The notes under the pieces were generated by a model, which was not told the DNA's origin, did no database searches, and worked only from the letters and a program-made list of their open reading frames with translations. A DNA stretch of 64,000 nucleotides from Tubulanus polymorphus (lineage: Eukaryota > Nemertea > Palaeonemertea > Tubulaniformes > Tubulanidae), in NCBI RefSeq assembly GCF_964204645.1, contig NC_134025.1, positions 24,458,001 to 24,522,000 of the forward strand. The letters are read 5' to 3'. A program made the translations under genes and the position numbers. The first letter of the stretch is position 1. Each line of letters begins with the position of its first letter. Positions 14,933 through 15,633 of this stretch are shown one piece after another.

Positions 14933-15023
14933 TTAAATTGAGGAACAGGTCGAGTGCCCCGCCATTCTTCAGCACCTCGACCTGTACGGATTTCAGCACG
15001 TCGAATAAAAAGTTACATGACAT
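14933..15023 (-). CDS. Candidate first coding exon of an unknown gene
   Basis: I do not recognise this protein. On the minus strand an ATG at 15023 opens 30 codons, beginning MSCNFLFDVLKSVQVEVLKN and ending in DLFLNL. They stop at a strong splice donor (AA|GTAAGT at 14932-14931). About 560 bp upstream is a well-formed core promoter (15585-15633), and the CTG/CAG tract lies between them. The same reading frame is open upstream through the whole tract as poly-Ser, but no in-frame ATG lies before it, so 15023 is the likely start if this is translated. No downstream exon was found, so a non-coding transcript or chance is possible. Confidence 0.35.
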
Positions 15024-15094
15024 GATTGTTGTAGTTTTTGTAGTTAGTTGTCGACGTTGTTGTAGGTTCCGTAGAAGGTTCTCACGGTTGTCGA

Positions 15095-15165
15095 AGGTTC
15101 TGTTGTAGAATGTTCTGTTGTAGAATGTTCTGTTGTAGAAGGTTCTGTTGTAGACGGTTCTTCTT
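15095..15165. repeat. Five imperfect 15-bp repeats beside the CTG tract
   Basis: The unit GTTCTGTTGTAGAAT is repeated with small changes about five times immediately next to the trinucleotide tract. In the minus-strand frame that leads to the candidate exon it encodes repeated Y-N-R-T-F. Confidence 0.8.
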
Positions 15166-15177
15166 GTTGTAGGTTCT

Positions 15178-15441
15178 CTGCTGCTGCTGCTGCTGCTGCT
15201 GCTGCTGCTGCTGCTGCTGCTGCTGCTGCTGCTGCTGCTGCTGCTGCTGCTGCTGCTGCTGCTGCTGCTGCTGCTGCTGCTGCTGCTGCTGCTGCTGCTG
15301 CTGCTGCTGCTGCTGCTGCTGCTGCTGCTGCTGCTGCTGCTGCTGCTGCTGCTGCTGCTGCTGCTGCTGCTGCTGCTGCTGCTGCTGCTGCTGCTGCTGC
15401 TGCTGCTGCTGCTGCTGCTGCTGCTGCTGCTGCTGCTGCTG
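15178..15441. repeat. Uninterrupted (CTG)88 / (CAG)88 microsatellite
   Basis: There are 264 bp of pure CTG on the plus strand, CAG on the minus strand, with no interruption. In the minus direction the three frames read poly-Gln, poly-Ala and poly-Ser. All three are open at both ends for some distance, but none has an ATG immediately upstream. It probably lies in a transcribed 5' leader rather than in a polyglutamine protein. Confidence 0.97.
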
Positions 15442-15584
15442 GCTGCAATATTGATAAAAGAAGATAATTAATACCAAGATATTAAATCAATCAAGAAACA
15501 TTTCATCGACAGAAAAAATAAAATGGACGCAGTTTAGCATACCGGAAAATGGGCGAACTGGAAAGAGTGACCCCGTGACCGGGC

Positions 15585-15633
15585 CTTATATACCGACACC
15601 GGTGTGACGTCATATTACACAATACTGACCAAT
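15585..15633 (-). promoter_or_regulatory. Core promoter: CCAAT, CRE and TATA box
   Basis: On the minus strand the order is an inverted CCAAT box (15629-15633), a full palindromic CRE TGACGTCA (15605-15612), and TATATAAG (15585-15592). The spacing is typical of cAMP/stress-inducible promoters. The transcription start is expected around 15550-15560, upstream of the CAG tract. The directionality is an inference from TATA orientation and element order. Confidence 0.6.

What the first reader, a model, noticed from the sequence alone, without database searches (positions are those of the whole stretch)
14933..15633. Pure (CAG)88 tract between a CRE/TATA promoter and a possible first exon
Seen: on the minus strand the order is CCAAT, TGACGTCA and TATATAAG, then 88 uninterrupted CAG units, then five 15-bp repeats, then an ATG exon with a strong GTAAGT donor. 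Known: this promoter layout is typical of cAMP- or stress-inducible genes, and pure CAG tracts of this length are unstable in other animals. Inferred: an inducible transcript with a long CAG leader. Notably the poly-Ser frame stays open for the whole tract and runs without a stop into MSCNFLF. Translation could therefore make a poly-Ser extension if initiation is non-AUG or an upstream exon is spliced to the AG just before the tract (TTTTATCAATATTGCAG).
Basis: partly seen in the sequence, partly recalled or inferred. Interest (0 to 1): 0.7.

Follow-up and report, generated by a model that had tools for sequence, protein, structure and literature searches.

The report
CAG expansion inside a giant gene-carrying transposon
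The 88-fold CAG repeat sits in the untranslated start of a gene carried by a 30-38 kb jumping DNA element, probably of an animal; this copy has lost most of the element and the gene's main exon, while most sister copies keep it.

Summary
In detail: window 15178-15441 (minus strand) is a pure (CAG)88 behind an inverted CCAAT, CRE and TATATAAG and before an ATG exon with a GTAAGT donor. But the locus is one of nine close copies of a dispersed unit. Promoter, splice signals, ATG and donor are conserved; the tract starts at the first bases of exon 2, so it is 5'UTR. None of 14 leaders read has an upstream ATG, and the tract's frame relative to the ATG differs between copies, so the poly-Ser extension is not supported. 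Pure runs of 76-88 units occur in 3 of 9 copies, on separate branches. Four of five copies whose 3' end I read close in a 96-bp inverted repeat and span 30.7-38.3 kb; exact 9-bp target-site duplications flank two of these four. The unit carries a predicted spliced gene, about 280 aa, without Pfam match. The window copy is internally deleted and lacks the 250-aa exon. Best reading: a foldback/Mutator-type transposon packaged and dispersed a whole satellite-rich gene. No transposase was seen; the superfamily rests on structure alone.

The parts
17350..17477 (-). 5' end module of the element; its outer ~100 bp are the terminal inverted repeat, outer end at 17477
   Evidence: boundary shared within a few bases by 8 of 8 copies aligned there; 28 further listed places match only this module, beginning at or within a few bases of 17477 (40 of 189 candidates scored)
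15625..15634 (-). inverted CCAAT box (CATTGGTCAG)
   Evidence: ATTGG(T/C)CAG in 9 of 9 close and 10 of 10 distant promoters read
15605..15612 (-). CRE, TGACGTCA
   Evidence: identical in 9 of 9 close and 10 of 10 distant promoters read
15585..15592 (-). TATA box, TATATAAG
   Evidence: TATATAAG in 8 of 9 close copies (in the ninth, C2_3.5, a TATA-type match was found only) and TATATAAG or TATAAA(A/T) in 10 of 10 distant ones
15543..15570 (-). predicted non-coding exon 1 (start inferred from the TATA position), donor GTATGC at 15542
   Evidence: motif and following GT conserved in 10 of 10 distant promoters; 16-mer at 46 exact and 23 one-mismatch places genome-wide, reversed-pattern control 4
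15443..15542 (-). predicted intron 1 (100 bp), acceptor TATTGCAG
   Evidence: acceptor ATATTGCAG found in 14 of 14 copies read
15024..15442 (-). 5'UTR part of exon 2
   Evidence: no ATG in 14 of 14 copies; frame relative to ATG not conserved
15178..15441 (-). (CAG)88
   Evidence: longest pure run in the other eight close copies 2, 76, 5, 4, 4, 88, 4, 3
15087..15177 (-). 15-bp tandem repeats in the 5'UTR
14933..15023 (-). first coding segment, 30 codons plus 1 nt (MSCNFLFDVLKSVQVEVLKNGGALDLFLNL), donor GTAAGT from 14932
   Evidence: amino acids identical in 9 of 9 close copies; 0 nonsynonymous differences
12184..14932 (-). start of intron 2, with a 28-bp minisatellite (12428-13168) and a segment not found in the other copies (13485-14364)
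12183..12184 (.). internal-deletion junction; the 250-aa exon of other copies is missing here
   Evidence: 12184 upward matches the 5' part of the unit and 12183 downward its 3' end; none of the 112 exon matches lies near this place
8334..12183 (-). 3' part of the element: 28-bp repeats (11733-12164) and subterminal 174-bp tandem repeats (8782-9739)
8286..8333 (+). 3' terminal inverted repeat, inner piece
   Evidence: 48 nt, 100% complementary to 17373-17420
7675..8285 (.). about 610-bp insert that splits the 3' terminal repeat (not identified)
7623..7674 (+). 3' terminal inverted repeat, outer piece (outermost bases inferred from the alignment)
   Evidence: 7631-7674 is 89% complementary to 17426-17469; alignment

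Best explanation
The tract is a 5'UTR microsatellite at the first bases of exon 2 of a multi-copy gene with a conserved CCAAT/CRE/TATA promoter. The nine closest copies (here 'subfamily A') behave as a giant transposon: 8 share one outer 5' end, and 4 of the 5 whose 3' end I read close in the matching inverted repeat and span 30.7-38.3 kb. I read this as a foldback/Mutator-type transposon that packaged and dispersed a complete, satellite-rich gene. The window copy is an internal-deletion derivative that keeps promoter, exons 1-2 and both ends but not the main coding exon, so it is probably a non-functional relic that could still be transcribed. The CAG run was born from the CAGs at the splice acceptor and exon start and expanded to 76-88 units separately in three copies. 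Shown: repeat family, inverted termini, target-site duplications in two copies, deletion, conserved promoter and splice signals, absence of upstream ATGs. Inferred: splicing, transcription, the superfamily, capture of the gene, and that a long CAG hairpin in the leader lowers translation of the two expanded copies that keep the main exon.
For: Nine copies with an identical first coding segment and 91-95% DNA identity on both sides of the tract. Common outer 5' end in 8 copies with different flanks; inverted 3' end in four, 85 of 95 to 94 of 96 positions identical to the 5' end. Exact 9-bp duplications CAAAAACTA and TGAATTTGG at the predicted place in 2 of 4 testable copies. Window 8334-12183 matches the 3' parts of other units, and the 250-aa exon is absent here. 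The 9 close copies lie farther from chromosome ends (median 4.2 Mb) than 28 other family members on contigs of known length (Mann-Whitney p = 2.5e-4), as expected if transposition moved them. Leader without ATG in 14 of 14 copies; tract frame not conserved. The expanded copies do not group: C1_7.5 pairs with the unexpanded C1_2.9 (support 92), C2_25.8 is inside a clade of support 99, the window copy in neither. The 250-aa exon is open in the six copies compared, pN/pS 0.33. Predicted leader energy -123 to -130 kcal/mol in expanded against -31 to -73 in unexpanded copies, lengths differing.
Against: The flanking nonamers agree only 6 of 9 and 4 of 9 in two of four copies, no better than the best of 59 control offsets (6 and 7); for C2_29.7 one control offset reached 8 of 9; a fifth copy (C5) lacks its 3' terminus; the window copy shows no duplication. 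3' ends of the other three copies were not read, and the 5' end of C1_7.5 did not align. Ends of the more distant family members were not fetched, and only 40 of 189 and 40 of 1108 candidates were scored, so diverged inverted repeats on them are possible. All three expanded copies are open in frame from tract to ATG, against 2 of 6 unexpanded (chance about 0.12, hand calculation). Tandem family members are not independent in the position test. No expression data.
Confidence: 0.72

Rival explanations
1. One reading: a functional cAMP- or stress-inducible gene here, whose CAG tract is translated as a poly-Ser extension of MSCNFLF.
For: CRE and TATA conserved; frame open from tract to ATG in the window copy.
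Against: Frame gives Ser, Ala or Gln in different copies; in-frame stops in 4 of 9 close and 5 of 5 distant copies; no ATG upstream; the window copy lacks the 250-aa exon.
Confidence: 0.05
2. Ordinary segmental duplication of a multigene family without transposition; the inverted repeats are unrelated nested elements.
For: A large family with tandem arrays and chromosome-end clustering exists; exact TSDs in only two of four copies.
Against: Same outer 5' end in 8 of 8 alignable copies with different flanks, inverted 3' end in 4 of 5 read, two exact 9-bp TSDs.
Confidence: 0.13
3. The gene is not captured cargo but the giant element's own gene, and all family members are old or eroded elements.
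For: The unit from promoter to 3' repeats is shared by distant members; coding exons constrained in dispersed copies.
Against: Matches to the 5' end and to the subterminal/TIR segment were listed only for the close copies, a few fragments and elements without a listed exon or exon 1 match (capped scoring); tandem arrays near chromosome ends look like a host gene family.
Confidence: 0.25
4. The length of the CAG tract is an assembly artefact.
For: Long simple repeats are error-prone in assemblies (general knowledge).
Against: Two copies at 88 and one at 76 with different flanking detail, six others at 2-5 in the same assembly; many long CAG tracts genome-wide.
Confidence: 0.04

Closest known systems
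Tm1 Mutator/Foldback elements of root-knot nematodes (PMC3169594; abstract and other passages seen)
   Same: Composite TIRs with tandem repeats, mostly 9-bp TSDs, different outermost motifs at the two ends
   Different: Elements sized in the passages are 1.1 and 2.6 kb; here 30-38 kb with a predicted multi-exon gene; no transposase seen here
Animal Pack-TIRs, including Ssk-FB4 of Drosophila melanogaster (PMC8277862; passages seen)
   Same: Gene sequence enclosed by TIRs and, in a few cases, amplified to several loci
   Different: Median duplicated length there is 224 bp and no Pack-MULE was found in 100 animal reference genomes; here about 30 kb with promoter and introns
Tetris foldback transposon (PMC4079207; abstract seen)
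   Same: Foldback-like element with about 220-bp tandem repeats inside its terminal repeats that also form satellite arrays
   Different: No carried gene is mentioned in the abstract; here 174-bp subterminal repeats and a gene
Ising's TE of Drosophila (passage in PMC6431247)
   Same: Foldback elements mobilising very long segments
   Different: Composite unit of hundreds of kb between two foldback elements; here one family with its own inverted ends
Giant Starship transposons of fungi (abstract start of PMC11623301 in a listing)
   Same: Giant element that carries genes
   Different: Fungal; mechanism not compared here
SCA12 / PPP2R2B CAG expansion (listing; position in the gene recalled)
   Same: Long CAG run in an upstream non-coding part of a gene
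   Different: Single human gene, disease; here a multi-copy element with separate expansions

Membership tests
Mutator/Foldback TIR transposon | Terminal inverted repeats | tested here: met
   95-96 aligned bp, 85-94 identical, in 4 of 5 copies with the 3' end read; in the window copy with an insert
Mutator/Foldback TIR transposon | 9-bp target-site duplication | tested here: inconclusive
   9 of 9 in two copies; 6 of 9 and 4 of 9 in two others; none visible in the window copy
Mutator/Foldback TIR transposon | Tandem repeats in or beside the terminal repeats, in inverted arms | tested here: inconclusive
   174-bp repeats at the 3' side of this unit; in inverted arms of sister elements, judged from match positions only
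Mutator/Foldback TIR transposon | MULE-type transposase in an autonomous relative | not tested
Pack-TIR (captured host gene) | Non-transposon sequence between TIRs, with a parental copy elsewhere without TIRs | tested here: inconclusive
   No match of distant family members to the A-type 5' end or subterminal segment was listed (capped scoring); their ends were not read
cAMP-inducible gene | Conserved CRE plus TATA promoter | tested here: met
   CRE in 19 of 19 promoters read, TATA-type box in 19 of 19
cAMP-inducible gene | Induction by cAMP or stress | not testable with these tools
   No expression data
Coding poly-Ser gene | Conserved frame through the tract into the ATG exon | tested here: not met
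   Frame varies and stops occur
5'UTR CAG-expansion locus | Tract in the leader, length differing between copies or alleles | tested here: met
   Pure runs of 2-88 units between paralogous copies; the leader itself is predicted; alleles within the species not tested

The most novel reading that the evidence does not exclude
A giant foldback/Mutator-type transposon of an animal moves a complete, constrained protein gene of about 30 kb, promoter, introns and satellites included, away from chromosome-end clusters. The splice-acceptor CAG at the head of its second exon is a recurrent expansion site that throttles individual copies through the RNA hairpin, giving a natural series of one promoter and one protein with leaders of 2 to 88 CAGs.
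Probability: 0.3. Interest if true: 0.75.

Novelty: new variant of a known kind. Interest (0 to 1): 0.55.

Why it matters
In the passages I saw, the Pack-MULEs of one survey did not exceed 7 kb and capture of full-length host genes by Pack-MULEs or Helitrons is called exceptionally rare (PMC6431247), arthropod MULEs reach about 10 kb (PMC13359780), and animal Pack-TIRs carry a median of 224 bp (PMC8277862). A 30-38 kb TIR-bounded unit with an open, predicted spliced gene in several loci would widen that range and show how whole genes can be moved with their regulation. The nine sister loci are also a natural experiment on CAG expansion: same sequence, different places, three expanded copies on separate branches.

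Tried and rejected
Coding use of the CAG tract (Ser, Ala or Gln): rejected because of frame changes and stops between copies. Chance promoter motifs: rejected because of conservation in 19 promoters. Known protein family for the gene: no Pfam family at E up to 10, no PHROG at E up to 1, only weak PDB hits with E of 0.17 or more. Search for the 3' end: still homologous in the stretches read downstream; found instead through the window copy. Pfam scans of nine window ORFs and three element ORFs gave no transposase.

Literature searches for a comparable case: (listed 15 of 75, 15 of 72, 12 of 79, 2 of 2, 8 of 38 and 10 of 867 papers). No listed title or abstract start describes a TIR element of this size with a complete gene in an animal; beyond the listings I saw only the passages or abstract cited.

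Full report
What is there. The finding is accurate: a pure (CAG)88 at 15178-15441 on the minus strand, between a promoter-like block and an ATG exon with GTAAGT donor. The 15-bp array has about six copies rather than five.

It is a repeat family. The first coding segment is encoded identically at nine places in the window's own 267.8-Mb assembly, and the DNA on both sides of the tract is 91-95% identical there. Five further copies encode a 52-55% identical peptide, and two weaker partial matches follow; the promoter and exon DNA of the five is 80-84% alike. The promoter core alone also matches at more divergent places, several of them about 7 kb upstream of a second, 250-aa exon that has 112 matches genome-wide, fragments included. 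An exon 1 motif, TTCCAGTTCGGCCATT, occurs at 46 exact places and 23 with one mismatch; the reversed pattern gives 4. Most one-mismatch places were not checked.

Gene anatomy. The promoter block was read in 9 close and 10 distant copies: ATTGG(T/C)CAG and TGACGTCA in 19 of 19 and a TATA-type box in 19 of 19; in the 10 distant ones exon 1 ends in C(A/C)G followed by GT(A/G)AG. In the close copies the donor is GTATGC (GTAAGC in C1_2.9), a weaker form. In the 9 close and 5 distant copies with the coding segment in hand, intron 1 ends ATATTGCAG and exon 2 begins directly there. The CAGs therefore start at or next to the first base of exon 2. Exon 2 runs through the 15-bp repeats to the ATG and ends 30 codons plus one base later. 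The next coding exon begins after TTTTCATTTCAG, with a phase that fits, and ends at a stop, so the predicted protein has about 280 residues. It has basic clusters and an acidic stretch and no known family. Splicing is predicted from conserved signals, not shown; further exons are not excluded.

The tract is untranslated. None of 14 exon 2 leaders contains an ATG, where base shuffles expect 1.0 to 3.9 each; exon 1 adds none in the nine close copies. The residue that would be in frame with the ATG is Ser, Ala or Gln depending on the copy, and stops lie between acceptor and ATG in 4 of 9 close and 5 of 5 distant copies. Against this reading, all three expanded copies are open, but 2 of 6 unexpanded ones are as well.

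Expansion. Longest pure CAG runs are: window 88, C1_28.5 2, C2_25.8 76, C2_29.7 5, C5_4.2 4, C6_4.3 4, C1_7.5 88, C2_3.5 4, C1_2.9 3, and 3 in each of the five distant copies. On a tree from the promoter, intron 1 and the start of intron 2 the expanded copies do not group. Three expansions are simplest; early expansion with contractions is not excluded.

Selection. Among nine copies the 30 codons have no nonsynonymous difference; the big exon has pN/pS 0.33 over six copies. Divergence is lowest in the coding segment and in the core promoter. In exon 2 this rests on two substituted sites, so it is weak alone.

The mobile unit. All 8 copies alignable there share an outer 5' end at window 17477 within a few bases, with unrelated flanks; the ninth, C1_7.5, did not align there. 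The same 128-bp end is listed at 28 other places that share nothing else of the query, and an inverted copy lies at window 7623-8333, split by an insert. Window 8334-12183 matches the far parts of other units. I then read five far ends: four finish in the inverted repeat, giving lengths of 33.5, 30.7, 38.3 and 36.2 kb; the fifth (C5) lacks its terminus. Within these four the two ends agree at 94 of 96, 89 of 96, 93 of 96 and 85 of 95 positions. The flanking nonamers agree 9 of 9 in two copies, 6 of 9 in one and 4 of 9 in one; among 59 control offsets the best values were 8, 6, 6 and 7. The window copy joins the first 5.3 kb of the unit to its last part at 12183/12184 and has lost the 250-aa exon; C6_4.3 also lacks an exon match. 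The other seven close copies have the exon open, in C1_7.5 about 25 kb from exon 2 instead of 6-8 kb.

Where the copies are. Of 47 marker places (46 exact plus the window's), 37 lie on contigs whose length I know; 34 of these are within 5 Mb of an end where 14.5 are expected. The nine close copies are farther from the ends than the other 28 (p = 2.5e-4). I read this as a gene family near chromosome ends of which one member was taken up and spread by a transposon. Capture is inferred, because the ends of the other members were not read.

What kind of transposon. Inverted ends of about 100 bp, 9-bp duplications, different outermost bases at the two ends and subterminal tandem repeats resemble foldback/Mutator elements such as Tm1 and Tetris. 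Elements of roughly 12-27 kb with the 174-bp repeats in inverted arms, three of them with the end module, and with no listed exon or exon 1 match, occur in the genome, judged from match positions. No transposase was seen, so this is 'works like', not membership.

How it probably works. The promoter should drive a spliced message from intact copies. The expanded leaders fold at -123 to -130 kcal/mol, against -31 to -73 for unexpanded ones, which by general knowledge would slow scanning. In the window copy a transcript could at most make a short product from exon 2. None of this was measured.

Noticed in passing
genome G000: Long CAG tracts are widespread: 154+157 C-phase tracts of at least 10 units (reversed pattern 4+2) and 1213+1176 overlapping (CAG)64 windows (reversed 146+202); one at C1:19525375 has at least 115 units.
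   Followed up: partly
G000:C6:3884040-4072223: Seven matches of the 250-aa exon in tandem about 28-34 kb apart, probably an array of the whole gene unit.
   Followed up: no
G000:C2:3429817-3505306: Match positions suggest two gene units in tandem inside one pair of element ends about 75 kb apart: A-type 5' end at 3505306, a second promoter at 3462559, A-type 3' segment at 3429817-3432125.
   Followed up: no
G000:C8:15154873-15171941: Pieces of the 250-aa exon repeated about every 2.7 kb.
   Followed up: no
G000:C1:4831697-4846645, C5:16390030-16402604, C2:25314001-25326735, C2:24189459-24215221, C4:26311129-26338006: Elements of about 12-27 kb that share 174-bp subterminal repeats in inverted arms (three also show the terminal module); candidates for the source of the transposase.
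   Followed up: partly
L061, L067 (C5 copy): The C5 unit lacks its 3' terminus and is followed by a copy of its own 5' flanking sequence; a similar stretch lies beside the window's 3' end.
   Followed up: no
window 7675-8285 and 13485-14364: Two segments, one splitting the 3' terminal repeat, one not found in the other copies; they look like retroelement pieces to the eye, no Pfam match for an ORF in the second.
   Followed up: partly
window 2330-5746, 34127-37170, 51650-53089: Host genes: tRNA-synthetase and GST-like exons, an ADP-dependent glucokinase domain in at least two exons, a C2H2 zinc-finger ORF of 479 codons.
   Followed up: no
window 38936-39147: (AT)106 tract.
   Followed up: no
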